Below, one piece after another: positions 4,047-32,654 of a stretch of DNA of 32,654 bases. Positions within the stretch are counted from its first letter, which is position 1, and every line of letters begins with the position of its first letter. Both the position numbers and the translations under genes were made by a program. The notes below the pieces were generated by a model that was not told the DNA's origin, did no database searches, and saw nothing but the letters and a program-made list of their open reading frames with translations. Source of the DNA: Solirubrobacterales bacterium (lineage in GTDB: Bacteria; Actinomycetota; Thermoleophilia; Solirubrobacterales; Solirubrobacteraceae); contig DAHUYL010000020.1 in NCBI GenBank assembly GCA_027315255.1, forward strand, positions 1 to 32,654. Direction: 5' to 3'.

Positions 4047-4108
4047 GTTGGTCTCCTCCTCCTTGTGAAGGGAATGCCCCAGGGGTGAATCGTGGTCGGG
4101 GCGGGGCC

Positions 4109-4138
4109 ATGATAATCCGACCTACGGCTGTATGCAAG
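4109..4138 (-). promoter_or_regulatory. Promoter of the transport operon with its -35 inside a GntR-type operator
   Basis: Read on the minus strand, TTGCAT (4137-4132), a 17-base spacer and TATCAT (4114-4109) form a good sigma70-type promoter for the binding-protein gene. On the plus strand, CTGTATGCAAG at 4128-4138 covers the -35 box. It closely resembles the TTGTATACAA-like dyads bound by FadR/FCD GntR proteins. A perfect relative lies at 4212-4223. Seen directly: the boxes, spacing and dyad. Inferred: control by the divergent regulator. Confidence 0.6.
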
Positions 4139-4164
4139 TCGCCCGATGCGCGCCCGCGACATTC

Positions 4165-4193
4165 TTGTGGTCGCTTTAGATTGCGGGTAGACG
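4165..4193 (+). promoter_or_regulatory. Possible promoter of the divergent GntR gene
   Basis: TTGTGG (4165-4170), 17 bases, then TAGACG (4188-4193) could be -35 and -10 boxes. Transcription would begin near 4200, just before the palindrome at 4212-4223. The -10 box is weak, so this is only a candidate. Confidence 0.3.
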
Positions 4194-4211
4194 AGCGTGC
4201 TCAGACCGGCT

Positions 4212-4223
4212 CTTGCATGCAAG
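4212..4223. promoter_or_regulatory. Perfect 12-bp palindrome, candidate GntR operator
   Basis: CTTGCATGCAAG is a perfect 12-base palindrome of the kind recognised by FCD/FadR-type GntR dimers. It shares ATGCAAGT with the imperfect dyad at 4128-4138, 84 bases away. It overlaps the upstream ATG candidate (4217) of the GntR gene and would lie just downstream of the candidate promoter at 4165-4193, a position suited to autorepression. Confidence 0.55.
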
Positions 4224-8035: not shown

Positions 8036-8050
8036 GACTGTGTCTCTCCT

Positions 8051-9073: not shown

Positions 9074-9092
9074 CCCCCGGTGACCTCGCTTT

Positions 9093-19401: not shown

Positions 19402-20148
19402 CTACGCGGCCACGGCCGGCCGGGCGAGGCGGTCGAGCGCGGCGACGACGTCGGCCGTGCGCGACAGCCACGCCGAGTGGTCGGTGTCGAGCTCGAGCAC
19501 CGGGTCGCAGCCGGCGGCCTGCGACATCAGCCGCTGCAGCGCCGGCGGGATCGCCCGATCGCGCAGGCAGACGATGTAGGCGCGGGGGAGCGCGAGGTAC
19601 GCCTGGGCGCGGTCGGGCTCGAGCCGGAACGGCTGTGCGAACGGTGCGCCGGGCTGCGGGCCGCGGCGGTCGAGCGCCCACTCGGCCTGCTCGTCGGTGC
19701 AGCTCGCGTACAGCGCGTGGCGCGCCGCCTCGCGCGGGAGCGTCGCGACCGGAGGGTCGCCCGAGATGACGAGGTTCGCCTGCACCTTGTCACCCGCGCC
19801 CTCCGGTAGGTGGGTGAGGTCGAGCAGGCTCTGGCCGTCGGCCGGGAGGAATGCGCCGAGGTAGACCAGCGAGGTCACGAGGTCGGGGCGGCGGGCGGCG
19901 GCCTGGGTGGCGACCATGCCGCCCATGCTGTGTGCGACCAGCACCGCCGGCGGGCCGGCGGCGAGCACCTCGAGCGTCCGCTCGGCGTAGCGGTCGAGCG
20001 TCACCTCGGCGACCGGCGTCGGGTCGGAGCCCGAGCCCGGTAGGTCGAACGTCTCGACCTCGTGGCCGGCGGCGCGAAGGCCCGGGACGACCGGCTCCCA
20101 GCACCACGCTCCGCCGAACGCGCCGTGTACCAGCACGATCCTCGCCAT
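19402..20148 (-). CDS. Alpha/beta hydrolase (esterase/hydroxynitrile lyase-like)
   Basis: This 248-residue cytoplasmic serine hydrolase has the oxyanion-hole strand IVLVHGAFGGAWCWEPVVPGL, nucleophile elbow VAHSMGGMVA (Ser in HSMGG), a cap region around YLGAFLPADGQSLLDL, and catalytic His in LELDTDHSAWLS. This pattern is that of the plant hydroxynitrile-lyase/methylesterase (EstC-like) group, which hydrolyse small esters or break C-C bonds. The ATG at 20148 shares its A with the TGA stop of the oxidoreductase gene (TGATG), so the two are translationally coupled. A substrate handed over from the quinone-reductase-like enzyme is possible but cannot be named. Confidence 0.88.
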   Translation of the reverse strand: MARIVLVHGAFGGAWCWEPVVPGLRAAGHEVETFDLPGSGSDPTPVAEVTLDRYAERTLEVLAAGPPAVLVAHSMGGMVATQAAARRPDLVTSLVYLGAFLPADGQSLLDLTHLPEGAGDKVQANLVISGDPPVATLPREAARHALYASCTDEQAEWALDRRGPQPGAPFAQPFRLEPDRAQAYLALPRAYIVCLRDRAIPPALQRLMSQAAGCDPVLELDTDHSAWLSRTADVVAALDRLARPAVAA

Positions 20149-21086
20149 CAGCTCCTCCTCGTGGTCAGCACCAGCTTGCCGCGCACACCGCCCTGCTCGA
20201 GCAGCCGGTGCGCCTCCGCCGCCTGGGCCAGGTCGAGCGTTCGCGCGACCCGGGTGCGCAGCTCGCCGCCGGCGACCATCCTGGTCAGCTCCGCCAGCGC
20301 CCCGGGGTCGCTCTCGACGAGCGGCATGTGGACGCTGACCCCCCGCGCGGCGAGCGCGTCCAGGCCGTCGAGTTCGAGCCGGCGGGTGAACACGACCGTG
20401 CCACCGTCGCGGACGGGCGCGGTCGCGGGCATCCCGAGCGGGACCCCGTCGAGCACGCCGTCGACCGGACCGATCGCGGCGAGGTCGGCCGATCGCGGGA
20501 GCACCTCCGCCGCCCCGAGCGAGCCGACCCACTGCTCGTCGCCACTCGCCGCCTGCGCGAGCACGCGCACGCCGGCTCGCGCCGCCAGCTGCACGACGAA
20601 GCTGCCGACCGCGCCGCTCGCGCCGGTGACGAGCAGCGTCGCGCCGGCTGGGAGCGCCAGCAGCGCGAGCATCTGGCGCGCGGTCAGCGTGTTCAGCGGC
20701 ACGGTCGCGGCCGTCACCGGGTCGAGCTCGGCCGGTCGCGGCGCGAGCCACGCCGGATCGACCGCGGCCGCCTGGGCGTACGCGCCCGTGCGCCCGGCGA
20801 TGTGATACCAGGGGATCATCCCGACGACCGGATCGCCCGGCGCGAACGGAGCGCCGGCGGGGGCCTCGGCCACCGTCCCGGCGAGGTCCCAGCCGAGCAC
20901 GAACGGCGGCTCGAGCTCGGTCAGGCGCCGCCGCGCCGCTCCCGCCCGGGCGCCGAGGTCCGTCGGGTTGACGTTTGCCGCTTCGATCTCGACGACCACC
21001 TCGCCGGCCGCCGGCACGGGCCAGGCGCGTTGCGCCTCGCGCAGCACGTCGGGGCCGCCGAACGCGGTCACCTCGCACACCCGCAT
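20148..21086 (-). CDS. NADPH:quinone reductase-like oxidoreductase (zinc-free MDR family)
   Basis: This 312-residue medium-chain reductase probably reduces quinones or enones with NADPH. The N-terminal GroES-like domain reads MRVCEVTAFGGPDVL and VVVEIEAANVNPTDLGAR, where zinc-enzyme Cys ligands are absent. The Rossmann part has ATLLVTGASGAVGSFVVQLAARAGVRVLA, with the GAVGS dinucleotide loop, and GVRGKLVLT at the end. I chose ATG 21086 because GGAGGTGAGGAG lies immediately upstream. An in-frame ATG at 21113 would place that Shine-Dalgarno inside the gene. It is the first gene of a two-gene unit with the alpha/beta hydrolase. Confidence 0.9.
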   Translation of the reverse strand: MRVCEVTAFGGPDVLREAQRAWPVPAAGEVVVEIEAANVNPTDLGARAGAARRRLTELEPPFVLGWDLAGTVAEAPAGAPFAPGDPVVGMIPWYHIAGRTGAYAQAAAVDPAWLAPRPAELDPVTAATVPLNTLTARQMLALLALPAGATLLVTGASGAVGSFVVQLAARAGVRVLAQAASGDEQWVGSLGAAEVLPRSADLAAIGPVDGVLDGVPLGMPATAPVRDGGTVVFTRRLELDGLDALAARGVSVHMPLVESDPGALAELTRMVAGGELRTRVARTLDLAQAAEAHRLLEQGGVRGKLVLTTRRS

Positions 21087-21162
21087 CGTCCGCTCCTCAC
21101 CTCCGCCTGGCATCGCGGCGCGATCCTAGGCGCCGCGGGCGCGACCGGCAACGCGCGCGCCA

Positions 21163-21301: not shown

Positions 21302-23131
21302 ATGGCAAGCACGGTGCCGGCGCTGAGCGCCTTCCCCAGTCCGTACTCGATCGAGACCCCGGAAGGGTGCGAGGGCTGGGAGGAGATGTACCCGTACTAC
21401 GCGCTGTTCGACGAGCGCCGGCGCGAGACCGACGAGAACCGCTTCTGGTTCTGGAACTCGATGCACTTCCCGGCGCCGCACCCGGCCTTCGACGTGTTCT
21501 GCATCGACTCGCCCTACCAGGCGGTCGGCTCCTGGCAGAACCGGGTGTTCGCGGTGCCGCCCGCGATGGGGATCGACTACCGCGTGGTCAACGGCTACAT
21601 CTACATCTCCGGCAACCCGGTGACCGATCCCGCCAAGGTCGCCGAGCGGGCGACGTACTTCCAGCGCCGCGCCGGCTACTACTACGAGAACTGGTCGGAG
21701 CTGTACGGCAAGTGGCGCGCGAAGATGGAGGCGCTGATCGCCGAGCTGGACGGCCTCGTCGTCCCCGGCCTACCCGAGTACGAGCCCGACGAGGTCGCGT
21801 TCGCCGCCGACCGCAACACCGCCTTCTACGAGGTGCTGGAGGCGTATGGCCGCACGCTGCGGCTCGGCGATCTGATGTGGCAGCACCACTTCGAGTTCCT
21901 GCTGCTCGGCTACGGCGCCTACGCCACGTTCGTCGACCTGTGCAAGGCGCACCTGCCCGACATCCCCGACCAGCACATCGCGCAGATGGTCGCCGGCATC
22001 GACGTGCTGCTGTTCCGGCCCGACGCCGAGCTGCGCCGGCTCGCGCAGCTGGCGCTGGACGCCGGCGTCGACGGCGCGTTCGCGAACGGGTCGAGCCCCG
22101 CGGAGATCGACGCACAGCTCGGAGGAAGCGAGGCCGGCCGCGGCTGGCTGGCCGAGCTCGAGCAGGCCAAGGACCCGTGGTTCAACATGGCCACGGGCGA
22201 CGGCCTCACCCACGACTACCGCAGCTGGCTGGACGATCCGAGCATCCCGTACGCGGCCATCGCCGGGTACATCGCCCAGCTGCGGTCGGGCGAGCTGAGG
22301 CTTCGCCCGACCGAGGAGATCCAGCGCGAGCGCGATCGGCTGACCGCCGAGTACGGCGCGCTCCTGCCCGAGCAGGCGCAGGGGCCGTGGCGCGACCTGC
22401 TGGCGCTGTCGCGCACGGTGTTCCCGTACGTCGAGGAGCACAAGTTCTACTGCGACTACTGGTTCCTGACCCGCTGGTGGAACAAGGTCCGCGAGTTCGG
22501 AGCACTGCTCGCCTCGCGCGGGTTCCTCGAGGACGGCGAGGACATCTTCCACCTCGGCCGCCACGAGGTCTCGGTCGCGCTCGACGAGCTGCTGCTGACG
22601 TGGGCGACCGGCGGCGAGCCGCTCGGCCCCAAGCACTGGCCACCGATTGCCGCCCGCCGCAAGCAGATGCTCGAGCGGCTGGCGAAGTGGAGCCCGCCGC
22701 CGGCGCTGGGGGTCACGCCCGACGAGATCACCGACCCGATGACGATCATGCTGTGGGGCGTCACGACCGATCGCGTCCGCGAATGGGCCCGCCACCAGGA
22801 CGGCGGCTCCGAGCTGCGGGGCGCGGCGGCGTCGCCGGGCACGGTCGAGGGCGTCGCGAGGGTCGTGCGCTCGGTCGACGAGATCGCCGACGTGCGCGAG
22901 GACGAGATCCTGGTCTGCGGCGCGACCTCGCCCGCGTGGGCGCCGATCTTCGCCCGGATCAAGGCGACCGTCACCGACGTCGGCGGCGTGATGTCGCATG
23001 CGGCGATCGTCTGCCGCGAGTACGGCCTGCCCGCGGTCGTCGGCACCGGCCGCGCGACCGCGCTGATCCGCACCGGCATGCGGATCCGGGTCGACGGCAC
23101 CGCCGGGCTCGTGACGATCCTCGAGCCGTGA
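21302..23131 (+). CDS. PEP-synthase/phenylphosphate-synthase-like subunit: substrate region plus phospho-His swivelling domain, first paralogue
   Basis: This 609-residue protein matches the substrate-binding and mobile parts of dikinases but has no ATP-binding domain. Residues about 1-510 are a mostly helical region rich in aromatic residues (EGCEGWEEMYPYYALF, YYYENWSELYGKW, FPYVEEHKFYCDYW). DPMTIMLWGVTTDRVREWA links to the C-terminal swivelling domain, where TDVGGVMSHAAIVCREYGLPAVVGTG holds the phosphorylatable His566. In Thauera phenylphosphate synthase, from memory, the 70-kDa subunit has the same build with His569, and a separate 40-kDa subunit binds ATP. The ATP partner here is probably the 28503-29573 product. 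It is a single-gene unit with its own promoter, and GGAGGAG before the ATG. Substrate unknown; rifampicin-phosphotransferase-like drug modification is a less likely alternative. Confidence 0.83.
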   Translation: MASTVPALSAFPSPYSIETPEGCEGWEEMYPYYALFDERRRETDENRFWFWNSMHFPAPHPAFDVFCIDSPYQAVGSWQNRVFAVPPAMGIDYRVVNGYIYISGNPVTDPAKVAERATYFQRRAGYYYENWSELYGKWRAKMEALIAELDGLVVPGLPEYEPDEVAFAADRNTAFYEVLEAYGRTLRLGDLMWQHHFEFLLLGYGAYATFVDLCKAHLPDIPDQHIAQMVAGIDVLLFRPDAELRRLAQLALDAGVDGAFANGSSPAEIDAQLGGSEAGRGWLAELEQAKDPWFNMATGDGLTHDYRSWLDDPSIPYAAIAGYIAQLRSGELRLRPTEEIQRERDRLTAEYGALLPEQAQGPWRDLLALSRTVFPYVEEHKFYCDYWFLTRWWNKVREFGALLASRGFLEDGEDIFHLGRHEVSVALDELLLTWATGGEPLGPKHWPPIAARRKQMLERLAKWSPPPALGVTPDEITDPMTIMLWGVTTDRVREWARHQDGGSELRGAAASPGTVEGVARVVRSVDEIADVREDEILVCGATSPAWAPIFARIKATVTDVGGVMSHAAIVCREYGLPAVVGTGRATALIRTGMRIRVDGTAGLVTILEP

Positions 23132-23144
23132 GCGCGGACGTACG

Positions 23145-23909
23145 TCAGCCGAGCACGCGACCGCCGTTGACCAGCAGCGTCTGGCCGGTCACGAATGCGC
23201 TTTCGTCCGAGACCAGGAACGTGAGCGCGCCGAGCAGGTCGTCTGGTTGCCCGACGCGCCCGAGCGGCGTCGCGCTCGCGTCGTAGCCGGCCGGTGCGAG
23301 CCCGGCGGCGCCCTCGGTCGGGATGAATCCGGGCGCGAGTGCGTTCACCCGGACCCGGTCCGGTCCGAGCTCACGCGCGAGCACGCGCGTGAGCCCGATC
23401 ACCGCTGACTTCGAGGCGACGTAGTGCGCCAGCCCGGTGGAGCCGGAGAAGGCGACCTCGGAGGCGAGGTTGACGATCGAGCCGCCGCCCGCCTCGCGCA
23501 GCAGCGGGGCAAGCGCCCGGGCGCACAGCCAGGATCCCTTCAGATTGACCGCCAGCACCCGATCCCACTCGGCCTCCTCGATCTCCTCGAACCCGCGCCG
23601 CGACAGGCCGGCGACGACCGCCGCGTTGTTGACGAGCGCGTCGAGGCCGCCCAGCCGTCCGCGCGCCGCGCCTGCCAGCGCCGCGGTCTGCGCCGACGAG
23701 CTGACATCGGCGATCGCCTCGCTCACGACCGCGCCTGCCTCTGCGGCGGCGAGCTCGCACGTTCGCGCGAGCGCGGTCGCGTCGAGATCACACGCCAGCA
23801 CCTGGGCGCCGAGCGACGCGAGGTGCAGCGTGAACGCCCGTCCGAGCCCGCCCCCCGCGCCGGTCACGAGCACCCGCTTGCCGGCAAGTCGCTGCTCGGC
23901 GGCGCTCAC
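23145..23909 (-). CDS. Short-chain dehydrogenase/reductase (SDR, classical)
   Basis: This 254-residue NAD(P)-dependent alcohol/ketone oxidoreductase has the cofactor motif TGAGGGLG (about residues 15-22), an acidic residue after the second strand (ACDLDATAL) that favours NAD(H), NNAAV, the catalytic Ser in NLASEVAFS and YVASK (Tyr and Lys). GPDRVRVNALAPGFIPTEG and the C-terminal VTGQTLLVNGG are typical of 3-oxoacyl-reductase-like members. The start is GTG at 23909, in a 4-base overlap with the upstream FAD oxidoreductase stop. It is the last gene of the minus-strand operon that begins with the second PEP-mobile-domain protein. It converges with the first paralogue across a 13-base gap. Confidence 0.92.
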   Translation of the reverse strand: MSAAEQRLAGKRVLVTGAGGGLGRAFTLHLASLGAQVLACDLDATALARTCELAAAEAGAVVSEAIADVSSSAQTAALAGAARGRLGGLDALVNNAAVVAGLSRRGFEEIEEAEWDRVLAVNLKGSWLCARALAPLLREAGGGSIVNLASEVAFSGSTGLAHYVASKSAVIGLTRVLARELGPDRVRVNALAPGFIPTEGAAGLAPAGYDASATPLGRVGQPDDLLGALTFLVSDESAFVTGQTLLVNGGRVLG

Positions 23910-25555
23910 GCGGCGGCGCGGACGCCCTCGAGCTCGAGGTCTAGCGCGATCTGCTGGAAGCAGTTGTACGAGGAGCCTCGGCCGATGCCCGGTCCCGAGT
24001 GGACGTTCGACGAGCAGTCGTACAGGTTCTCGAGCAGCAGCCGGTAGCCGCTCAGCTCGGGGATCGGCCTGAAGCGCCCCAGCTGGGACGCGATCGTCGA
24101 AGCGGCCGAGTAGCCGCCCTCGACCATGTCGGGGCGCTCGCGCTCGATGTCCTGCGGCGTATACACGCGCGTCGCGATCACGTTCTCGCGTGTCATGTTC
24201 GGGGCGTAGCCGGCCCACACCTCGAGCAGGTTGCCGATGAACCGCTCCCCGAGCTCTCGCCACTGCTCCGCCGTGAACATCCGGCGCGGCGCGGCGAACT
24301 CCTCGACTCCGACGATGTGGCGGCCGGCGGGCGCACGCGAGCCGTCCCAGACGCTGTCGACCGAGCTGAGCACGTAGGGACGGCTGGCGAATCCCCGCAG
24401 GTAGATCTCGGGCTGGTAGCGCAGCGTCAGGTAGTCGATGTCCCTGGCTCCCCAGTAGAGCCGCGGCTGCGTCCCGACGCCGGGGTTGCCGCTCTCGGCG
24501 AGGTACTGCGGCGGCTCGTGGATCGCGAGGTTCGCCCAGAACAGCTGCCCGCGGTCGTAGTGGATGTTCTCGAGGCGCCGCCGCAGCCTGCCGTCGAGCG
24601 GCAGGTCGCGCAGCAGGCGCAGCACCGTCTGCGGAAGCCCCAGGTTCGAGACGACCGTCCCGGCGTCGATCCGCCCGCCACCGGCGAGCTCCACCCCGCT
24701 CGCGCGCCCGTTCGAGACCACGATGCGGTCGGCCTCGCTACCGGTGAGGTACTCGACGCCGCGCTTGCGTCCGGCGCTCACCAGCGCATCGGTGATCGCC
24801 TGGCTGCCGCCGACCGCGATCGCGGCGGGCTCGAACGACAGCGTCAGCGGCAGGCAGTGGACGAGGCCCTGGAGCCCGGGCACGTCGTCGGGGAAGCAGC
24901 CGGTCGAGGTTGTCGTGGCGCGCATGAACAGGATCTGCAGCTCCGGGCTCTCGAAGAAGTCGCGCGCCAGCTGGCGGAGCGTCATGAACTGGTGCACCGG
25001 CTCGAGCATGCTCCCCGGGACCTCGAGCAGCTGCTCGAGCGCGTCCGGCTCGCCCCACGCCGGCGGCGGGCTGAAGCGGTGACGCCTGAACGCCTGCTTC
25101 CAGTGGCGCTCGTAGGCGTCGAGCAGCTGCAGATAGGCGTCGGCGTCGCGCTGCGAGAAGCGCGCGATCTGCGCGTGAGTCCGCTCGATGTTCGCCTCGG
25201 CCCGCTCCTGGCGCCCGGTCACGGGATCGACCACGCGGGACGCCGAGAACCCGATCAGCGAGGAGCCGTCGTCGAAGATCATCCCCTCGTTCTGCTCAGG
25301 GAAGACGTACCGCAGCCCCTCGTCGTAGAGCCCGAAGTCGCGGTAGGCGGGATGGCCGTAGAAGCGAGTCCAGTGACTGCAGTGGTTCATCAGGAACCCG
25401 GGCGCCGGCCCCTCGCTGGTGACCGCGCCGCCGCCGAGGTGCGCGCTGCGCTCGAGCACCGCGACCGACAGCCCGGCGCGTGCCAGGTAACACGCGATGA
25501 TCGTGCCGTGGTGGCCGCCGCCGATCACGACGGCGTCATAGGCGGCGTCGCTCAA
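23906..25555 (-). CDS. Phytoene desaturase-like NAD(P)/FAD-dependent oxidoreductase
   Basis: This 549-residue flavoprotein belongs to the COG1233 group (phytoene desaturase, carotenoid isomerase and relatives). The N-terminal FAD motif is VVIGGGHHGTIIACYLARAGLSVAVLE, then HLGGGAVTSE. The middle has AVGGSQAITDALVSAGRKRGVEYLTG and VVSNLGLPQTVL. The C-terminal FAD segment LLENLYDCSSNVHSGPGIGRGSSYN matches the family's 'LYLAG..THPGGG..G..G.N'. No other carotenoid gene is nearby, so it probably acts on a different hydrophobic or alicyclic compound. The start is TTG at 25555, because no ATG/GTG lies between the upstream stop and the Rossmann motif. That stop is only four bases away, so it is co-translated with the dikinase-like gene. 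Confidence 0.88.
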   Translation of the reverse strand: MSDAAYDAVVIGGGHHGTIIACYLARAGLSVAVLERSAHLGGGAVTSEGPAPGFLMNHCSHWTRFYGHPAYRDFGLYDEGLRYVFPEQNEGMIFDDGSSLIGFSASRVVDPVTGRQERAEANIERTHAQIARFSQRDADAYLQLLDAYERHWKQAFRRHRFSPPPAWGEPDALEQLLEVPGSMLEPVHQFMTLRQLARDFFESPELQILFMRATTTSTGCFPDDVPGLQGLVHCLPLTLSFEPAAIAVGGSQAITDALVSAGRKRGVEYLTGSEADRIVVSNGRASGVELAGGGRIDAGTVVSNLGLPQTVLRLLRDLPLDGRLRRRLENIHYDRGQLFWANLAIHEPPQYLAESGNPGVGTQPRLYWGARDIDYLTLRYQPEIYLRGFASRPYVLSSVDSVWDGSRAPAGRHIVGVEEFAAPRRMFTAEQWRELGERFIGNLLEVWAGYAPNMTRENVIATRVYTPQDIERERPDMVEGGYSAASTIASQLGRFRPIPELSGYRLLLENLYDCSSNVHSGPGIGRGSSYNCFQQIALDLELEGVRAAA

Positions 25556-25559
25556 CGGC

Positions 25560-27398
25560 TCACAGGATCGTCACCGTGCCGGTGTCGCCGTCGACGCGCA
25601 GGCGATCGCCGGTCCTGATGCGGGCGGTCGCGTCACCCGTGCCGACGACCGCCGGCAGCCCGTACTCGCGCGAGACGATCGCCGCGTGCGACATGATCCC
25701 GCCGATGTCGGAGACGGCGGCGCCGATCTTGCCGAACACGGGGGTCCAGCTCGGGGACGTGACCGGCGCGACCAGGATCTCTCCCGGCTCGAGCTCGCCG
25801 AGCTGCTCGACGCCGAGCACGACGCGGGCAACACCCTCGACGAGTCCTGGCGATCCGGCGAACCCTTTCAGCGTGCGGCCGCCGTCGCCCTCGTGGTCGG
25901 CGGCCCACTGGCGGACCCGCTCGGTGGTGATGCCCCACAGCATGATCGTCATCGGGTCGGTGATCACGTCGGGCACCGACCCGAGGGCGGGTGGGGGTAC
26001 GAATCGCCGCATCGCCTCCATGATCCGCTTGCGCCGGGCGACGATCGGCGGCCAGTAGCCGGGCCCGCGCGGCGCCGAGCCGGCCGCCCACGCCAGCCTC
26101 ACATCGACGAGCGCATCGAGCACCTCGTGGCGCTGGAGGTAGAACAGGTCCTCGGCGTCTGCAAGCACGCCGTGGCGTTCCAGCAGCGCGCCGAACTCGC
26201 GAGCCTTGTTCCAGAAGACCGTGTGGTACCAGTGCTCGATGTAGAAGTTGTGGCTCTCGACGTACGGGAACACGACGCGGGCGAGCCCGAGGCTCTGGTC
26301 GAACGCTCCGCGCGCGTCGCCATCCAGCAGCTCGCGGTGCTCGGCGACGATGCGCTCGCGCTCGGCACTGACCTCGGCCAGCGGCCGGGCGATGTCCTCG
26401 CCGGCCTCGAGCCGCTCGACGTAGCCCCGCAGATGCGCGAGCGGCACATCCGGGTCGTCGATCCAGGAGCGGTGATGGTGGTAGAAACCGTTGCCGTTGG
26501 AGTAGTGAAACCACGGCGTCTTGACGGCGTCCCAGTCCGACAGCCACTGCCGCCCGGCCGTGCTCGGCGCGAGTGCAACCCGCAGGTCGGCCTCGCTCGC
26601 GCTCGCGCCCGACAGGATCGCGTCCGCGATTCCCGCCTCGATCGCGCTCGCCGACAGCCGCTTGAGCTCCTCGTCGGGCCGGAACAGCACGACGTCGACG
26701 CCGGAGAGCATGTTCGCGATCGTCTGATCGGCGATGTCCGGGAAGTGCTGCTTGCACAGCTCGTAGAAGACGAGGTAGGCGGCGTAGCCGAGATTGAGGA
26801 ACTCGAAGTGGTACTGCCAGATCAGGTCGATGCTCTCGAGCAGCCGGTGGTAGGCGACGAGCAGCCTGTGGGATGACCCGACCCCGCGGGCCTCTGTGAC
26901 GACCGACTCGTCCTCGATCTCGGGAAGCTCAGGCACCTCGAGCGCGGCGAGGTCGGCGATCGCCTGCTCGACCTTGCGCTGCCAGCGACCGTACAGCTCA
27001 TCCCAGTTCTGGAAGTAGAACCCGGCCCGCTGCCCGAAGAGCTCAGCCCGACGCCCGACCTCGGCCGGGTCGGTGACCGGGTTGGCGCTCATGTACACCC
27101 AGCCGAACAGCACCCGGTGGTCGATCCCCAGCGAGGGCGGCACGACGAAGATGCGGGAGTTCGCCTGGCCGAGTGACAGGTAAGGCGAGTCGGCCGTGAC
27201 GAAGTCGAACGGGTACATCGGCTCGGGGAAATGCATGCCGTCCCGGAACCAGCCGCGCGCCTCCTCGGCGTCGCGCCGCTCGTGGCGGAACAGCGCGTAG
27301 TACGGATACATCGACTCCCAGCCCTCGCACCCCGCGGGTGCCGCCAGCTCGAACGGGCTCGCGAAGCCGCGCGTCGGCGGCTCGATCGTCGTGGCCAT
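25560..27398 (-). CDS. PEP-synthase/phenylphosphate-synthase-like subunit: substrate region plus phospho-His swivelling domain, second paralogue
   Basis: This 612-residue paralogue of the 21302-23131 product is co-linear along its whole length. Conserved blocks are AGCEGWESMYPYYALF, TPWFHYSNGNGFYHHHRSWIDDP, FPYVESHNFYIEHWYHTVFWNKAREFGALL, DPMTIMLWGITTERVRQWA and the phospho-His loop SDIGGIMSHAAIVSREYGLPAVVGTG with His571. It too lacks an ATP-binding domain. It starts an operon with the FAD oxidoreductase and SDR and is divergent from a LysR regulator. Differences in the helical region (for example NMATGDGLTHDY versus HYSNGNGFYHHH) suggest a different substrate or two non-identical subunits of one complex. 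The ATG at 27398 follows GAGAGGAG. Expected reaction: phosphoryl transfer from phospho-His to an alcohol, phenol or enol. Confidence 0.83.
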   Translation of the reverse strand: MATTIEPPTRGFASPFELAAPAGCEGWESMYPYYALFRHERRDAEEARGWFRDGMHFPEPMYPFDFVTADSPYLSLGQANSRIFVVPPSLGIDHRVLFGWVYMSANPVTDPAEVGRRAELFGQRAGFYFQNWDELYGRWQRKVEQAIADLAALEVPELPEIEDESVVTEARGVGSSHRLLVAYHRLLESIDLIWQYHFEFLNLGYAAYLVFYELCKQHFPDIADQTIANMLSGVDVVLFRPDEELKRLSASAIEAGIADAILSGASASEADLRVALAPSTAGRQWLSDWDAVKTPWFHYSNGNGFYHHHRSWIDDPDVPLAHLRGYVERLEAGEDIARPLAEVSAERERIVAEHRELLDGDARGAFDQSLGLARVVFPYVESHNFYIEHWYHTVFWNKAREFGALLERHGVLADAEDLFYLQRHEVLDALVDVRLAWAAGSAPRGPGYWPPIVARRKRIMEAMRRFVPPPALGSVPDVITDPMTIMLWGITTERVRQWAADHEGDGGRTLKGFAGSPGLVEGVARVVLGVEQLGELEPGEILVAPVTSPSWTPVFGKIGAAVSDIGGIMSHAAIVSREYGLPAVVGTGDATARIRTGDRLRVDGDTGTVTIL

Positions 27399-27429
27399 CC
27401 GGAACTCCTCTCGTCCTCGTCGAGCGGTG

Positions 27430-27459
27430 ACCTTATTCGCGCGCCCCGCGCACGATCAA
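27430..27459 (-). promoter_or_regulatory. Candidate promoter of the second PEP-mobile-domain operon
   Basis: Minus strand TTGATC (27459-27454), 18 bases, TAAGGT (27435-27430). The -10 is imperfect. The start codon at 27398 lies about 30 bases downstream, with GAGAGGAG in between. Confidence 0.4.
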
Positions 27460-27467
27460 GACCCAAT

Positions 27468-27481
27468 TCACCTCGCTGTGA
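27468..27481. promoter_or_regulatory. Candidate LysR operator in the divergent spacer
   Basis: TCAC-CTCGCT-GTGA is a short perfect dyad of LysR-box size, lying nine bases upstream of the minus-strand -35 box at 27454-27459 and 23 bases before the LysR ATG. LysR proteins usually bind such sites between themselves and a divergent target. A TATCAT at 27493-27498 could be the LysR -10. Confidence 0.4.
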
Positions 27482-27504
27482 GAGGCTCCGCCTATCATCG
27501 CCCG

Positions 27505-28407
27505 ATGGAGCTGCGGCAGCTGAGGTCGTTCGTCGCGGTCGCGGAGGAGCAGCACTTCCGCCGCGGCGCCGAGCGGCTGCACCTGGCGCAGCCGAGCGTC
27601 AGCCAGCAGATCCGGACGCTGGAGGCCGAGCTGGGCGTGCGACTGTTCGACCGCAACCGTCGCGGCGCCTCGCTGACAGCCGCCGGCGACGCGCTGCTCG
27701 AAGAGGCGCGCGAGCTGCTCAGCCGGGCCGACGATGCCGCCGCAGTCGTGCGGGCGACGGGCATGGGCCTCCGCGGCCGGCTGCGGATCAGCCTCACCCG
27801 CTCGCTCACCGGCGGCGTCGCGGGCGCGATCGTCGACGCGTTCCGCGCCCGCCATCCCGACGTCGACGTCGAGCTGCGCCTCGGCACGACGATGCTCCAC
27901 GTCTGGCAGCTTCACGCCGGCGAGATCGACGTCGCGTTCGTGCGGCCGCCGCTCGACGATCCCAGACTCGAGGAGCTGACGCTGGGGCGCGAGCCGCTGG
28001 TCTGCGTGCTGCCGAGCGGCCACCGTCTGACCCGGCGGTCGCGGATCGCGGCTCGAGATCTGCGGGATGAGCCGCTCGTCTGGTGGCCCGAGGAGCACGG
28101 TCCCGGTGCCTGGCGCGAGGTCCGCCGCGAGATCTGCGGCGAGCCGCCGTGGCCGCCCCTGGCGCGGGCGGAGCCGGAGGAGGAGCGGATCGTGTCCGCC
28201 GTCGCGGAAGGCGCGGGCGTCTCTTTCATCATGCTCGAGCGCTCGCGCAGCCTGCGGATCCCCGGCGCCGTCTACCGCCGCTTCGCGGCGCCCGAACCGA
28301 CGATGGGAATCGCGCTGGCGTGGCGGCGCGGCGACCGGCTGCCGACGCTCCAGCGCCTGCTCGACCTCGCCGCCGAGATCGCCGCCTCCCCGGACCGGGA
28401 CCGCTGA
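27505..28407 (+). CDS. LysR-type transcriptional regulator
   Basis: This 300-residue regulator has a standard N-terminal helix-turn-helix (MELRQLRSFVAVAEEQHFRRGAERL, LAQPSVSQQIRTLEAELGVRLFDRNRRG) and the two-lobed co-inducer domain (LRISLTRSLTGGVAGAIVDAFRARHPDVDVEL, EIDVAFVRPPLDDPRLE, VCVLPSGHRL). Subfamily features resemble CatR/BenM-type regulators of aromatic and chloroaromatic catabolism (the 'QPSxSxQIxxLE' start is general). The ATG at 27505 gives the classical N-terminus; upstream extension to 27391 is not supported. It is divergent from the dikinase-like/FAD-oxidoreductase/SDR operon and 95 bases before the ATP-domain/carboxylase operon on the same strand, so it could control both arms. 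Confidence 0.92.
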   Translation: MELRQLRSFVAVAEEQHFRRGAERLHLAQPSVSQQIRTLEAELGVRLFDRNRRGASLTAAGDALLEEARELLSRADDAAAVVRATGMGLRGRLRISLTRSLTGGVAGAIVDAFRARHPDVDVELRLGTTMLHVWQLHAGEIDVAFVRPPLDDPRLEELTLGREPLVCVLPSGHRLTRRSRIAARDLRDEPLVWWPEEHGPGAWREVRREICGEPPWPPLARAEPEEERIVSAVAEGAGVSFIMLERSRSLRIPGAVYRRFAAPEPTMGIALAWRRGDRLPTLQRLLDLAAEIAASPDRDR

Positions 28408-28502
28408 ACGATGCGCTGGGCGCCGGGCCGGCGCGCACGGATCCACAATCGCTTGCACTCCAGCCGTGCCTGCGCCTAAGGTGCGCGACCGAGGAGAGAC
28501 CG

Positions 28503-29573
28503 ATGACCGAGTACAGCCGCCCCCTGAGCGACCTACGAGCGGCCGACGAGCCGGCCTACGGCGGAAAGAGCAGTGCGCTCGGCGAACTGCTCGCCGCGGG
28601 CATCTGCGTCCCCGCCGGGTTCGCCGTGCCGTGCGAGGTCGAGCGGCGGTTCGTCCGCGAGGCCGGGCTCGAGCAGCTGATCGACGGACTGATCGCGCGG
28701 GCGCCGGTCGGAGACGTCGCAGCGGTCGCGGCGGCGGCACGCGCGATCGCCGAGGCGATGCGCGCAGCGCCACTGCCGGCGCCCGTGCGAGCCGCGATCA
28801 CGACCAGCTACCGGGATCTCGCGCGCCACGCCGGGGGGGAAGCGCCGCCGGTCGCCGTCCGCTCGAGCGCGATCGGCGAGGACAGCGCCGAGGCCGCGTT
28901 CGCCGGCCAGCAGGAGACCTACCTCTGGGTGCGGGGGGCCGACGCGGTCTGCGAATCCGTCCGCGACTGCTGGATCAGCCTCTACAGCGCCGAGGCGATC
29001 AGCTATCGCGCCCACCTCGGCGGCGAGCGCCCGGCGGCGATGGGCGTGGCCGTGCAGCTGATGGTCGACGCGGCGGTCGCCGGCGTGATGTTCACGTGCA
29101 ATCCGGTGACCGGCGATCCGAGCATGGTCGCGATCAACGCCAGCTGGGGGCTCGGGCCGGCGGTCGTCGGCGGCGAGGTGACGCCCGATGACGTGCTCGT
29201 CTCCAAGGTGACGGGTGAGGTGGTGCGCGAGTCGATCACGGAGAAGCTGATCGAGTACGTTCCGCACCCGTCCGGCGGCGGCATGCTGCGTCGTGAGGTG
29301 CCCGCCGACCGAGCCGCTGCGCCCTGCCTCGAGGCGTCCGCACGCGCGGCGCTGCTCGAGCTGGCCCGCGCCGCCGAGCGCCACTTCGGATCACACCAGG
29401 ACATCGAGTTCGCGATCGCCCGTCAGGGGAGCCCGCCGGACAACGTGTTCGTCGTCCAGTCGCGTCCCGTCACGGGCGTCGCCGCCCGGCCGGCGCCGCC
29501 GCCGCCGGTGGGTGGGGGCGATATCTCGGCGCTCGCACTCGTCATGCAGAAGTTCGGAGCGGGGGCGGCCTGA
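28503..29573 (+). CDS. Stand-alone PEP/pyruvate-dikinase N-terminal ATP-binding domain protein
   Basis: This 356-residue protein consists only of the ATP-grasp domain of PEP synthase-type dikinases. Motifs are YGGKSSALGELLAAGICVPAGFAV, PVAVRSSAIGEDSAEAAFAGQQETYL, SLYSAEAISYRAHLG, AVAVQLMVDAAVAGVMFTCNPVTGDP, INASWGLGPAVVGGEVTPDDVLV, and the closing QDIEFAI...VFVVQSRPVT. There is no swivelling His or PEP/pyruvate barrel, so it cannot complete a dikinase reaction alone. The two His-bearing paralogues nearby supply the missing half, as in phenylphosphate synthase. A good Shine-Dalgarno (GAGGAGAG) precedes the ATG at 28503. It is followed by the carrier protein with a TGATG overlap, tying ATP-dependent phosphorylation to the biotin carboxylase genes. 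The expected reaction transfers the beta-phosphate of ATP to the partner His, releasing AMP and phosphate. Confidence 0.88.
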   Translation: MTEYSRPLSDLRAADEPAYGGKSSALGELLAAGICVPAGFAVPCEVERRFVREAGLEQLIDGLIARAPVGDVAAVAAAARAIAEAMRAAPLPAPVRAAITTSYRDLARHAGGEAPPVAVRSSAIGEDSAEAAFAGQQETYLWVRGADAVCESVRDCWISLYSAEAISYRAHLGGERPAAMGVAVQLMVDAAVAGVMFTCNPVTGDPSMVAINASWGLGPAVVGGEVTPDDVLVSKVTGEVVRESITEKLIEYVPHPSGGGMLRREVPADRAAAPCLEASARAALLELARAAERHFGSHQDIEFAIARQGSPPDNVFVVQSRPVTGVAARPAPPPPVGGGDISALALVMQKFGAGAA

Positions 29574-29989
29574 TGCTGAGCGACGAGGACGTACGCGAGA
29601 TCCTGCGGATCGTCGACGCGACGCCGCTCGCGGAGTTGAGGATCGAGACGCGCGGGTTCTCGCTTCACCTCGTGCGGGATCGTTCGGCGCCGGCCGATCC
29701 AGATGAAGCCGCGGCTCCGCGCGCGGTCGAGGTCGGCTCGAACAACGGCCTCTTGACGATCGACGCGCCGATGCTCGGCACCTTCTACCGCGCCGAGGGT
29801 CCCGGCGCGGCACCGTTCGTCGAGGTCGGCAGCCGGGTCGAACCGGACACGATCGTCTGCATCATCGAGGTGATGAAGATGATGAACTCGGTGCCCGCCG
29901 GGGTCGGCGGGACGGTCGTCGAGGTCTGCCAGGAGAACGCGCAGCTGGTCGAGTACGGTGCGCCGCTGTTCCGCGTGGAGCCATCGTGA
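29573..29989 (+). CDS. Biotin carboxyl carrier protein (AccB-type)
   Basis: This 138-residue carrier shuttles carboxyl groups on biotin between the carboxylase and the carboxyltransferase encoded next. The N-terminal 35 residues (DVREILRIVDATPLAELRIETRGFSLHLVR) match the helical AccB leader. A short acidic/Ala linker follows, and then the biotinyl domain APMLGTFYRAEGPGAAPFVEVGSRV. The biotinylation site is EVMKMMN with Lys102, where AccB normally has EAMKM(M)N. A protruding-thumb-like GTFYRAEGPGAAPF insertion is present, as in AccB. It overlaps its neighbours by 1 and 4 bases, so the four proteins are probably made in set ratios. Confidence 0.93.
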   Translation: MLSDEDVREILRIVDATPLAELRIETRGFSLHLVRDRSAPADPDEAAAPRAVEVGSNNGLLTIDAPMLGTFYRAEGPGAAPFVEVGSRVEPDTIVCIIEVMKMMNSVPAGVGGTVVEVCQENAQLVEYGAPLFRVEPS

Positions 29990-31320
29990 AGCGGGTGCTG
30001 ATCCCCAACCGCGGCGAGATCGCGGTGCGGCTCGTGCGCGCCTGCCGCGAGGCGGGGCTCGAGACCGTGGTCGGCTGCTCGGACGTCGACCGCGACGGCC
30101 CGGCGGCGCGACTCGCCGATGCGCGCGTGTGCCTCGGACCGGCGCCGGCGGCGGCCAGCTACCTGCGCGACGACGCGGTCGTCCAGGCCGCGCTCGGGAC
30201 CGGCTGCGACGCGATCCACCCGGGGTACGGGTTCCTCGCCGAGAGCCCGCGGCTGGCCCACCGCGCGGCCGAGCACGGGCTGCGGTTCATCGGGCCGCCG
30301 GGGGACGTGATCGAGCTCGCGGGGGACAAGACGGCGGCGCGCGAGCAGGCGGCGATCGCCGGGCTGCCGGTGCTCCCCGGGAGCGTGGTCGGATCGGCGG
30401 CGGCCGCCCGCGCCGCCGCGGAGCAGTGCGGCTATCCAGTGCTGCTGAAAGCCGCCGGGGGTGGGGGCGGGCGCGGGATCAAGCTCGTGCGCGATCCGTT
30501 CGAGCTCGGCGGCAAGCTTGCGCTTGCGCGCAGCGAAGCGCTGCAGGCGTTCGGCGACGACCGCATCTACGTCGAGCGGCTGGTGGCCGATGCGCGCCAC
30601 GTCGAGATCCAGATCGCGGCCGGGCCGGACGGCGAGGTGGTCCACCTCGGCGAGCGCGACTGCTCGGTCCAGCGCCGCCACCAGAAGCTGATCGAGGAGG
30701 CGCCCGCGCCCGAGCTGTCGGGCCAGCTGCGCGACGCGATTCGCGAGGCAGGGGTGAGGTTCGCGCGTGCGATCGGGTACCGCAACCTCGGGACGGTCGA
30801 GTTCGTCGTCGATGCCGAGTCCGAGCAGTTCTTCTTCCTCGAGATGAACTGCCGGATCCAGGTCGAGCACCCGGTCACCGAAGCCGTCACCGGGCGCGAC
30901 CTGGTGGCGCTGCAGCTGCGGATCGCCGACGGCGAGCCGCTCGGCTTCACCCAGGACGAGGTGACGTTCGACGGTCACGCGATCGAGTGCCGGCTGTGCG
31001 CGGAGGATCCGGCGCGCGGATTCCAGCCCTCGCCCGGAACGCTGACGCGGTTCCACGTGCCGGCGCTCGACGGGCTGCGGGTCGATACGCACTGCGCCCC
31101 CGGCGTCACGATCCCGCCGTACTACGACTCGCTGATGGCGAAGCTGATCGCCCACGCCGACCGGCGCGAGCACGCGATCGAGCTGCTGCTCGAGGCGCTG
31201 GCCGAGACCGAGGTCGAAGGAGTCTCGTCGAACCGGGCGCTGCTGGCCTCGCTGCTCCAGCGAACCGACTTCCAGGCGGGCGCCGTCACGACCGACTGGC
31301 TCGAGCGGGCGATCGTATGA
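29986..31320 (+). CDS. Biotin carboxylase (AccC-type)
   Basis: This 444-residue ATP-grasp enzyme carboxylates biotin on the carrier protein using ATP and bicarbonate. Seen in order: N-terminal domain KRVLIPNRGEIAVRLVRACREAGLETV, IHPGYGFLAESPRLAHRA, ATP-binding Lys in GDKTAAREQA, the glycine-rich flap KAAGGGGGRGIKLV, HVEIQIAAGPDGEVVHLGERDCSVQRRHQKLIEEAP, and the catalytic EMNCRIQVEHPVTEAVTGRDLVA, then GHAIECRLCAEDP and PYYDSLMAKLIAHA. All usual active-site residues appear to be present. The start is GTG at 29986 (GTGA overlap with the carrier gene). Whether it also serves general acetyl-CoA carboxylase cannot be excluded, but gene linkage argues for a dedicated enzyme. Confidence 0.94.
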   Translation: MKRVLIPNRGEIAVRLVRACREAGLETVVGCSDVDRDGPAARLADARVCLGPAPAAASYLRDDAVVQAALGTGCDAIHPGYGFLAESPRLAHRAAEHGLRFIGPPGDVIELAGDKTAAREQAAIAGLPVLPGSVVGSAAAARAAAEQCGYPVLLKAAGGGGGRGIKLVRDPFELGGKLALARSEALQAFGDDRIYVERLVADARHVEIQIAAGPDGEVVHLGERDCSVQRRHQKLIEEAPAPELSGQLRDAIREAGVRFARAIGYRNLGTVEFVVDAESEQFFFLEMNCRIQVEHPVTEAVTGRDLVALQLRIADGEPLGFTQDEVTFDGHAIECRLCAEDPARGFQPSPGTLTRFHVPALDGLRVDTHCAPGVTIPPYYDSLMAKLIAHADRREHAIELLLEALAETEVEGVSSNRALLASLLQRTDFQAGAVTTDWLERAIV

Positions 31321-32654
31321 CCTCGGTCGAGCTGATCGACACGACCATGCGCGACGGCAACCAGAGCCTGTGGAGCGCCACCGGCTTGACGACGCCGGAC
31401 CTGGTCGCGGTGGCGCCGGCGTTCGACCGGGTCGGCTACCACGCCTGCGACTTCACCTCGAGCACGCACATGGCGGTGTCGGTGCGCTTCCATCGCGAGG
31501 ACCCGTGGGAGCGGATCAGGCTCGTGAGCGCGGCGATGCCGATCACGCCGCTCAGCATGATCACCACCGGGATGCGGTTCATTGCGTGGGTGCCGGCCGC
31601 CGAGGACGTGATGGCGCTGTCGTTCCGGCTCGTGGCGCGCTGCGGCATCCGCCGCATGCAGATCGCGGACCCGTCGAACGATCCCGAGCGGCTGCGGCGG
31701 ATCGCTCGGCTCGCCCGGCGCGAGGGAATCGAGGAGGTCGTGATCGGCCTGACCTACTCGATCAGCGAGGTCCACACCCACGCCTACTACGCGCAGAGGG
31801 CCGCGGCTCTGGCCGACTGTGCCGACATGGACAGGCTGTACCTGAAGGACCCGGGCGGGTTGCTCACCCCCGACGCGGTCCGCGAATTGGCGCCGGCGTT
31901 CATCGCCGCTGCCGGCGAGCGGCCGACCGAGCTCCACAGCCACTGCACGATCGGGCTTGCCCCGTTCGTCTACGTCGAGGGCGTGCGCGCCGGTTTCCAC
32001 GCGGTCCACACCGCGTCCGGGCCGCTGTCGCGCGGCACCTCGCAGCCGGAAGCGGTTGCGACAGTCCGCAACCTCGAGGCGGCCGGAATGTCGGTGGCGC
32101 TCGACCTCGACGCGCAGGCGGCGGTCACCCGCCACTTCGACGAGCTGGCGGCGCGCAACGGGCTGCCGGCGGGTACGCCCCAGGAGTTCGACGCCGCCTA
32201 CTACCGCCATCAGCTCCCGGGCGGGATGGTGACGACGACGCAGCGGATGCTCGACGAGCTGCGCCGACCGGAGCTGTTCGAGGCCGTGCTCGAGGAGGTC
32301 CCGCGCGTGCGCGCCGAGATGGGCTACCCGATCATCGTGACGCCGGTGTCGCAGCTGATCGCGACGCAGGCAACCCGCAACGTGATCGAGCCCGAGCGCT
32401 GGATGACCGTCTCGGACGAGACGGTTCGCTACTTCCTCGGGCACTACGGCGAGTCGCCGGCACCGGTCGACCCGGTGGTGGCCGCCCGCGTGCTCGACCG
32501 CCCCCATTCGGCGAAGTTGAGCGAGCTCGAGCCGATCAGCCTCGAGGGCGCCCGCGCCCGGTTCGGCTCGCGGATGTCCGACGAGGAGCTGCTGCTGCGC
32601 CTGACGATGCCCGAGGAACAGGTGGACGCGATGGTCGCCGCGCGCGAGGGTGCG
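31317..32654 (+). CDS. Biotin-dependent carboxyltransferase, pyruvate carboxylase/oxaloacetate decarboxylase (HMGL-like) type, C-terminus off the right edge
   Basis: This TIM-barrel carboxyltransferase has 446 residues visible. The metal-site residues of the family are present: Asp13 in MRDGNQSLWS, the carbamylated Lys177 in LYLKDPGGLLTP, and His207/His209 in LHSHCTIGLAP. GTSQP and the catalytic Thr (PGGMVT, Thr306) are also conserved. However, the LLRG(A/Q)NxVGY segment, whose Arg and Tyr bind pyruvate in pyruvate carboxylase (Arg621 and Tyr628 in Rhizobium etli, from memory), here reads ITTGMRFIAW, with Thr84 and Trp91 at those places. The acceptor may therefore not be pyruvate. ATG 31317 overlaps the biotin carboxylase stop (ATGA). 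A C-terminal PYC_OADA-like helical region is present; no fused biotinyl domain is seen before the edge. Confidence 0.88.
   Translation, partial: MTSVELIDTTMRDGNQSLWSATGLTTPDLVAVAPAFDRVGYHACDFTSSTHMAVSVRFHREDPWERIRLVSAAMPITPLSMITTGMRFIAWVPAAEDVMALSFRLVARCGIRRMQIADPSNDPERLRRIARLARREGIEEVVIGLTYSISEVHTHAYYAQRAAALADCADMDRLYLKDPGGLLTPDAVRELAPAFIAAAGERPTELHSHCTIGLAPFVYVEGVRAGFHAVHTASGPLSRGTSQPEAVATVRNLEAAGMSVALDLDAQAAVTRHFDELAARNGLPAGTPQEFDAAYYRHQLPGGMVTTTQRMLDELRRPELFEAVLEEVPRVRAEMGYPIIVTPVSQLIATQATRNVIEPERWMTVSDETVRYFLGHYGESPAPVDPVVAARVLDRPHSAKLSELEPISLEGARARFGSRMSDEELLLRLTMPEEQVDAMVAAREGA

What the first reader, a model, noticed from the sequence alone, without database searches (positions are those of the whole stretch)
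21302..32654. Candidate undescribed system: split phenylphosphate-synthase-like dikinase joined to a biotin-dependent carboxylase
A dikinase appears divided into a stand-alone ATP domain (28503-29573) and two His-domain/substrate proteins (21302-23131, 25560-27398). The ATP-domain gene is not beside the usual UbiD-type phenylphosphate carboxylase but opens an overlapping operon with carrier protein, biotin carboxylase and carboxyltransferase. This suggests a pathway in which an alcohol, phenol or enol is phosphorylated (ATP to AMP and phosphate) and a related compound is carboxylated by biotin chemistry. The FAD oxidoreductase and SDR could prepare the substrate. In known anaerobic phenol metabolism, phenylphosphate synthase is paired with a biotin-independent carboxylase. 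Alternatives: the operon and the mobile-domain genes work separately, or the phosphorylation detoxifies an antibiotic.
Basis: partly seen in the sequence, partly recalled or inferred. Interest (0 to 1): 0.85.

Follow-up and report, generated by a model that had tools for sequence, protein, structure and literature searches.

The report
Phosphorylate-then-carboxylate operon with inserted cassette
A soil actinobacterium carries a variant of a known gene set that tags phenolic ketones with phosphate and then adds CO2 to them, with a second, little-studied set of genes inserted into the middle of it; the main pathway is already described, the inserted part may be new.

Summary
The claimed novelty does not hold. 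A split dikinase beside a three-part biotin carboxylase is the published Hpe/Acv pathway (PMC9618137, PMC12167813). H1, I, BC and CT are 42-49% identical to a Rhodococcus cluster whose I is nearly identical to HpeI. In seven relatives H-I-BCCP-BC-CT is unbroken; a HAD phosphatase follows wherever the contig goes on, as it does on the contig that probably continues this window. All 54 well-flanked named-genome loci with a related carboxyltransferase have a kinase component nearby.

Unusual: a LysR-H2-FAD oxidoreductase-SDR cassette sits between H1 and I. It stands alone in another family of the order. In both genomes one stand-alone ATP subunit was found, so H1 and H2 probably share it. Eight of nine examined loci with this flavoprotein carry a kinase component; the ninth is cut short. 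The SDR resembles those of cre-like (4-cresol) clusters. A Cre-like branch feeding the carboxylase is possible but untested. Verdict: new variant of a known kind.

The parts
21302..23131 (+). H1: HpeH-like His/substrate-binding subunit of a two-component dikinase (609 aa; phospho-acceptor His566)
   Evidence: NF006153 873 bits; T/SxxGGxxxH motif; 81% to the H gene that directly precedes I in L175; 49% to Rhodococcus JS3073 H
23145..23909 (-). SDR oxidoreductase of the inserted cassette
   Evidence: PF13561 E 2e-55, scanned in the longer frame 23145-24263; best matches among the session's loci outside this genome: SDR of the G076 cassette (58%), cre-like clusters (48%), L197-L199 (45-52%)
23906..25555 (-). 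CrtO/CrtI-like FAD oxidoreductase of the inserted cassette
   Evidence: weak CrtO match, 130 bits against a cut-off of 1000; model pLDDT 80, best fold match carotenoid desaturase 4rep, TM 0.72; 75% homolog beside the H2 homolog in G076
25560..27398 (-). H2: second HpeH-like His/substrate subunit (His571) without an ATP-subunit gene beside it in its own operon
   Evidence: NF006153 857 bits; 54% to H1 and 54% to JS3073 H; best fold match rifampin phosphotransferase, from a model of pLDDT 68
27505..28407 (+). LysR-type regulator, divergent from H2; part of the cassette
   Evidence: PF03466/PF00126; 80% homolog in the same position in G076
28503..29573 (+). I: stand-alone ATP-grasp subunit (HpeI-like)
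   Evidence: PF01326; best PDB match 9goj = HpeI, E 2e-73
29573..29989 (+). biotin carboxyl carrier protein (VMKM)
   Evidence: PF00364; motif
29986..31320 (+). biotin carboxylase subunit
   Evidence: PF02786/PF00289/PF02785; 46% to JS3073
31317..32654 (+). carboxyltransferase subunit, cut by the contig end
   Evidence: PYC_OADA and HMGL-like; RDGNQS, LKDPGG, HSHC motifs; 47% to JS3073, 75-79% to same-genus relatives
20148..21113 (-). quinone oxidoreductase/ADH-like gene that also adjoins H1 in some relatives
   Evidence: PF13602/PF08240; 67-70% homologs beside H1 in L175 and L185
19402..20148 (-). alpha/beta hydrolase that also adjoins H1 in some relatives
   Evidence: PF12697; 64-68% homologs beside H1 in L179 and L184

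Best explanation
H1, I, BCCP, BC and CT form a Hpe/Acv-type pathway for phenolic ketones. I binds ATP and passes its beta-phosphate to the swivel His of H1 (ATP to AMP + Pi). H1 transfers it to the phenolic OH of a 4-hydroxyaryl methyl ketone. BCCP-BC-CT then carboxylates the acetyl methyl group of the phospho-ketone with bicarbonate and another ATP. A HAD phosphatase on the contig that probably continues the window removes the phosphate, and an acyl-CoA synthetase and a cleavage step would release acetyl-CoA and a hydroxybenzoate. Gene content and order are shown here; the reactions are inferred from the characterised relatives; the exact ketone is unknown. A LysR-H2-FAD oxidoreductase-SDR cassette has come to lie between H1 and I. 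H2 is a second substrate subunit that most likely borrows the I protein of the operon (inferred).
For: Domains and motifs. Best PDB match of I is HpeI 9GOJ. Reference cluster on the Rhodococcus sp. JS3073 plasmid: its I differs from 9GOJ at about ten of 366 residues and its order is H-I-BCCP-BC-CT-HAD-synthetase. Identities to it: H1 49, I 42, BC 46, CT 47, BCCP 61% over 71 residues; C114 HAD 32 and synthetase 41%. H-I-BCCP-BC-CT is contiguous in seven relatives (L036, L038, L039, L043, L046, L047, L049); HAD follows in five, the other two contigs end at or just behind CT. G000:C114 overlaps the window end by 74 bp (72 identical) and carries the CT end and the HAD gene. HAD lies within 500 bp downstream of CT in 65 of 70 loci with room for it. 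Biochemistry of HpeHI, HpeCBA, HpeD: PMC9618137, PMC12167813.
Against: No activity was measured. 42-49% identity allows another substrate; HpeHI itself prefers HAP and acetovanillone over close analogs. H1 is not the window protein closest to JS3073 H; H2 is (54 against 49%; grouped with it at 99/98 or 82/96 support, on a long branch). The synthetase on C114 is about 9.7 kb behind HAD, on the other strand, with unrelated genes between. A HpeF-type hydrolase was not sought. The join to C114 rests on 74 bp with two mismatches. In L044 and L045 H is followed directly by CT without I, BCCP or BC. PMC13101465 cites kinase and carboxylase genes as clustered in only 52 of 836 cases, so the full operon is not the rule.
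Confidence: 0.8

Rival explanations
1. One combined pathway: H2+I phosphorylates a 4-alkylphenol such as 4-ethylphenol, FAD oxidoreductase and SDR oxidise the side chain of the aryl phosphate to a ketone (an oxygen-independent counterpart of the Cre route), and the carboxylase takes that phospho-ketone directly.
For: The cassette lies inside the operon, and one stand-alone I was found in the genome. The window SDR is 48% identical to cre-like SDRs and 45-52% to those of L197-L199. In L199 the order FADox-FADox-SDR-H'-I'-HD-AFOR recalls the cre-like order P450-I-H-SDR-Fd-FAD-HD-ALDH; the HD proteins match at 34%, E 2e-22. H2 groups with the H of the hpe reference cluster.
Against: In G076 the cassette is on a different contig from the operon. 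No HD phosphatase or aldehyde dehydrogenase in the cassette. H2 is only 27% identical to H'. SDRs beside FADox in L200 and L203 are only 38 and 36% identical to the window's, no better than unrelated ones. FAD chemistry on an aryl phosphate side chain is not demonstrated for this family.
Confidence: 0.2
2. Cassette and operon are independent systems that lie together by insertion; H2 serves another phenol and only borrows I.
For: Own LysR regulator, divergent from H2; the cassette stands alone in G076; FADox in 0 of 80 carboxyltransferase loci.
Against: The two genomes of the 101-genome kinship set that have the cassette both have the operon too; one I for two H proteins would mean at least a biochemical dependence.
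Confidence: 0.55
3. The dikinase acts on a non-aryl alcohol or enol and the carboxylase on a related non-phosphorylated compound.
For: Substrate not tested; two relatives keep TPP E1 alpha/beta pairs and an ABC solute-binding protein beside the operon, which the hpe papers read do not describe.
Against: The characterised homologs named in the papers read (Hpe, Acv, Cre, Pps) act on phenols; HpeCBA did not carboxylate unphosphorylated AV or HAP.
Confidence: 0.1
4. Antibiotic detoxification of the rifampin phosphotransferase kind.
For: H2 model's best fold match is RPH.
Against: RPH is one chain, about 18% identical in the fold match; H and I of this kind sit in operons with carboxylase and phosphatase.
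Confidence: 0.02

Closest known systems
Hpe pathway, hpeHICBADEF (Rhodococcus rhodochrous GD02; PMC9618137, PMC12167813)
   Same: Two-component dikinase plus three-subunit biotin carboxylase plus HAD phosphatase; same order as the JS3073 cluster whose I is nearly identical to HpeI
   Different: 42-49% identity; H1 separated from I by a cassette; synthetase not directly behind the phosphatase; second H protein; Solirubrobacterales host
Acv pathway, acvABCDEF (Sphingobium SYK-6; as described in PMC9618137 and PMC13101465, original paper not held)
   Same: Homologous and syntenous kinase, carboxylase and phosphatase genes according to those papers
   Different: Not compared by sequence here; SYK-6 was not among the 80 loci returned
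Cre pathway for 4-cresol (reference: cre-like Rhodococcus plasmid loci L206, L207, so named here by gene content)
   Same: H-I dikinase with an SDR and an FAD protein; window SDR is 48% identical to theirs
   Different: No P450, ferredoxin, HD or ALDH gene in the window cassette; the window FAD protein has the carotenoid-desaturase fold and no BLAST match (E 1e-3) to the FAD protein of L206
Phenylphosphate synthase/carboxylase (Azoarcus KH32C, L205)
   Same: Homologous H (47-49%) and I (39%) subunits
   Different: There followed by a CBS-domain protein and ppcBDAG/UbiD genes; the window has a biotin carboxylase instead
MarK pathway (Novosphingobium aromaticivorans; PMC13101465 passages, original not held)
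   Same: A very similar pathway by that account
   Different: A single-component kinase replaces H and I

Membership tests
Hpe/Acv pathway | Two-component dikinase: separate ATP-grasp and His/substrate proteins with T/SxxGGxxxH | tested here: met
Hpe/Acv pathway | Biotin carboxylase of three subunits encoded with the kinase | tested here: met
Hpe/Acv pathway | HpeD-like HAD phosphatase directly behind the carboxylase genes | tested here: met
   on G000:C114 through a 74-bp contig overlap with two mismatches, 32% to JS3073; directly behind CT in five of seven relatives with H-I-BCCP-BC-CT, the other two contigs ending there
Hpe/Acv pathway | HpeE-like acyl-CoA synthetase in the cluster | tested here: inconclusive
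   acetoacetate-CoA-ligase-like gene on C114, 41% to JS3073, but about 9.7 kb from HAD and on the other strand; directly behind HAD in relative L038; SYK-6 is reported to lack it
Hpe/Acv pathway | HpeF-like beta-keto-CoA hydrolase | not tested
   own genome not searched for it; SYK-6 is reported to lack it too
Hpe/Acv pathway | Phosphorylation of HAP/AV and carboxylation of the phospho-ketone only | not testable with these tools
   needs enzyme assays
Phenylphosphate synthase + carboxylase | UbiD-type ppc genes and CBS-domain subunit beside the kinase | tested here: not met
   none among the window genes scanned with Pfam; present in reference L205
Cre pathway | H and I beside P450, ferredoxin, SDR, HD phosphatase and ALDH | tested here: not met
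   only an SDR of that kind is shared
Rifampin phosphotransferase | ATP-grasp, substrate and swivel domains in one chain | tested here: not met
   domains on separate genes

The most novel reading that the evidence does not exclude
The LysR-H2-FADox-SDR cassette is an undescribed, oxygen-independent counterpart of the Cre route: H2 shares the operon's ATP subunit with H1, phosphorylates an alkylphenol, a carotenoid-desaturase-type flavoprotein and a CreG-like SDR turn the side chain of the aryl phosphate into a ketone, and the product enters the Hpe-type carboxylase without dephosphorylation. One ATP subunit would then serve two interchangeable substrate subunits, and phosphate would act as a handle through a whole oxidation-carboxylation sequence.
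Probability: 0.15. Interest if true: 0.65.

Novelty: new variant of a known kind. Interest (0 to 1): 0.4.

Why it matters
It places the Hpe-type phosphorylate-then-carboxylate gene set in Solirubrobacterales and Rubrobacter, lineages not named in the passages of the hpe papers that I read (their supplements were not open to me). It suggests that the kinase is modular: one ATP subunit, two substrate subunits. It also ties a carotenoid-desaturase-like flavoprotein family to small-molecule kinases, a link that two full-text searches did not find in print. This bears on why phenols are phosphorylated before degradation, which the Hpe authors call unclear.

Tried and rejected
Undescribed system: rejected after PMC9618137 and PMC12167813 and the JS3073 reference cluster. 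Seven-gene conserved unit: rejected, FADox in 0 of 80 loci. Antibiotic inactivation: rejected on gene context. Borders of the cassette: repeats in 22900-28800 were short or imperfect, apart from the H1/H2 homology itself (20 of 25 direct families and 25 of 60 inverted pairs were shown); no mechanism of insertion found. tRNA-Ala predicted inside LysR: no Rfam family reached its gathering score in the window, taken as spurious. FADox beyond the class: 0 of 395 other sampled phylum genomes at E 1e-60; the 20 plasmid homologs listed of 77 records are 27-30% identical. Structure of H2: mean pLDDT 68, used only for the fold match. Literature link between FADox-type proteins and such kinases: two searches asking for at least four terms, 0 papers each. 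SYK-6 and EbN1 clusters were wanted as references but were not among the 80 loci kept of 330. Rows dropped: H sequences under 480 residues, with stops, or duplicates; L204, L124 and L197-L199 left out of the trees (present).
Full report
What is in the window. The contig is 32,654 bases of a 4.3-Mb, 231-contig genome. The closest named matches of its carboxyltransferase are Solirubrobacterales MAGs at 77-79%. The gene order in the region is: alpha/beta hydrolase and quinone-oxidoreductase-like genes (minus), H1 (plus), SDR, FAD oxidoreductase and H2 (minus), LysR, I, BCCP, BC, CT (plus). Sequence signatures are intact: T/SxxGGxxxH in H1 and H2, GGK, AVRSS, QDIEF and QSRP in I, VMKM in BCCP, and RDGNQS, LKDPGG and HSHC in CT. 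The catalytic meaning of the T/SxxGGxxxH motif is from PMC12167813; that of the others is recalled. The CT frame runs off the contig end.

The continuation. G000:C114 begins with 74 bases that match the window's last 74 at 72 positions. It goes on with the CT C-terminus and a HAD hydrolase, then two-component regulators and a P-type ATPase, and about 9.7 kb further, on the other strand, an acetoacetate-CoA-ligase-like gene. Only these two CT pieces of the kind were found in this genome, so I read C114 as the continuation, though two mismatches leave room for a second copy.

It is a known kind. PMC9618137 (abstract, parts 1-2 of 6, the pathway-validation and discussion sections, and passages seen) describes HpeHI, a two-part kinase, and HpeCBA, a biotin carboxylase that acts only on the phosphorylated ketone, in R. 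rhodochrous GD02, with homologous acvABCDEF in SYK-6 and xcc genes beside hpeHI homologs in EbN1. PMC12167813 (parts 1-3 of 6 and passages seen) shows that HpeHI is a dikinase forming AMP, that HpeH His581 is essential, and gives HpeI as 9GOJ. The window's I has 9GOJ as its best PDB match. The Rhodococcus sp. JS3073 plasmid carries an I with about ten differences from 9GOJ in 366 residues, in the order H-I-BCCP-BC-CT-HAD-synthetase. H1, I, BC and CT are 42-49% identical to it, BCCP 61% over 71 residues.

Conservation. Of 101 genomes in the kinship set, 29 had a CT match at E 1e-3, many of them distant (27-38% identity); 17 matches in 13 genomes, this one included, were at 64% or more, besides the 24-residue piece on C114. 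In seven fetched relatives (L036, L038, L039, L043, L046, L047, L049) H-I-BCCP-BC-CT is unbroken; HAD follows in five, and in L043 and L047 the contig ends at or just behind CT. Two other relatives (L044, L045) have H directly followed by CT. A scan of named genomes gave 330 relatives, of which 80 loci were kept. With at least 5.5 kb upstream and 1.5 kb downstream, 54 loci remain: 24 have H and I, 25 a Tm-1-like protein, none both, none neither; the other five have H alone (four) or I alone (one). So the arrangement is not confined to this genome. It is not universal either: PMC13101465 (passages) cites kinase and carboxylase genes as clustered in only 52 of 836 cases.

The inserted cassette. 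In those relatives H is directly followed by I; in the window 5.4 kb lie between. G076, from another family of the order, has LysR (80%), H2 (76%), FADox (75%) and SDR (56%) in the same arrangement on contig C61, while its own H-I-BCCP-BC-CT-HAD operon is on C73. In both genomes the PPDK_N family finds one ATP-grasp gene of this kind, that of the operon, and one long frame (885-891 codons), probably PPDK. So H2 has no ATP subunit of its own that I could find; the genomes are 92 and 95% complete, so one could be missing.

What the cassette resembles. Among 399 class genomes, 9 have FADox relatives at E 1e-60, 12 places in all. I examined 9 places (window, G076 and seven others) and left out three at 32-34% identity. 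Seven have an H gene beside FADox, some only 22-30% identical to H1/H2; one (L200) has a UPF0261 gene nearby and an I gene further off beyond a transposase; one (L201) stops at the contig end. In L199 the order is LysR | FADox-A - FADox-B - SDR - H' - I' - HD - AFOR; L197 and L198 match it by BLAST, by gene sizes and by the AFOR places, the HD gene having been scanned in L199 only. Cre-like clusters on two Rhodococcus plasmids read P450 - I - H - SDR - ferredoxin - FAD protein - HD - ALDH. The window SDR is closest to the G076 copy (58%), then the cre-like SDRs (48%) and those of L197-L199 (45-52%); of the other rows shown (30 of 40) none passes 39%, and the SDRs of L200 and L203 are among these. 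The HD proteins of L199 and L206 match at 34%. That suggests a Cre-like logic with a carotenoid-desaturase-fold flavoprotein in place of the P450. The list of Cre enzymes is from PMC8796525 (passages); which gene does which step is recalled.

Trees. H1 falls in a 20-row Solirubrobacterales/Rubrobacter clade (100/100). H2 and its G076 copy form their own pair (100/99), grouped with JS3073 H (99/98 without pps, cre and haloarchaeal rows; 82/96 with them), on a long branch. So H1 holds the hpeH place in the operon while H2 is nearer in sequence to the reference H. Which of the two acts on hydroxyacetophenone cannot be told.

Context that does not fit neatly. In L175 and L179 homologs of the window's 2.7-10 kb block (ABC solute-binding protein, GntR, two TPP E1 alpha/beta pairs, TIM-barrel protein) lie next to H1, with one gene between, and in L038 and L039 homologs of an E1 alpha and of the TIM-barrel protein do. 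These are not in the hpe gene table of PMC9618137 and may point to a different or longer natural substrate.

Verdict. The chemistry of the cassette is open.

Noticed in passing
L056, L057 and 30 of 80 named-genome loci: A Tm-1-like/UPF0261 protein takes the place of H and I beside the same kind of carboxylase; never both in one of the 80 loci. PDB 9mpy (UPF0261) may be MarK, the single-component kinase cited in PMC13101465, so this is probably already explained.
   Followed up: partly
L054:7547-10518: Masses printed for HpeB (49.3 kDa) and HpeA (57.4 kDa) in PMC9618137 fit the biotin carboxylase (49.5) and carboxyltransferase (57.5) of the JS3073 cluster, opposite to the labels in that paper's Table 1.
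   Followed up: partly
L197, L198, L199: Conserved gene set of two CrtO-like flavoproteins, SDR, divergent two-component dikinase, HD protein (scanned in L199) and aldehyde ferredoxin oxidoreductase in three Thermoleophilia genomes with 15-26 AFOR matches each.
   Followed up: partly
window 2730-9956: ABC solute-binding protein, GntR, two TPP E1 alpha/beta pairs and a TIM-barrel protein; homologs of the block lie near the H1 operon in L175 and L179.
   Followed up: partly
L044, L045: H followed directly by CT and HAD, without I, BCCP or BC between.
   Followed up: no
G000:C168, about 49486-49818 (L183:7487-7819): A 110-residue stand-alone swivel-domain ORF, 61% to H1; gene remnant or separate phospho-carrier.
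   Followed up: no
L081: Sphaerobacter MAG cluster H-I-H-BCCP-CT-HAD: two H genes around one I, another hint that one ATP subunit may serve two H proteins.
   Followed up: no
L036:7456-9907: DpgC-like enoyl-CoA hydratase-family gene (377 bits, under the cut-off of 530) and an AMP ligase behind the operon; homologs in L038, L040 and L042.
   Followed up: no
window 28133-28209: ARAGORN tRNA-Ala inside the LysR gene, without Rfam support.
   Followed up: yes
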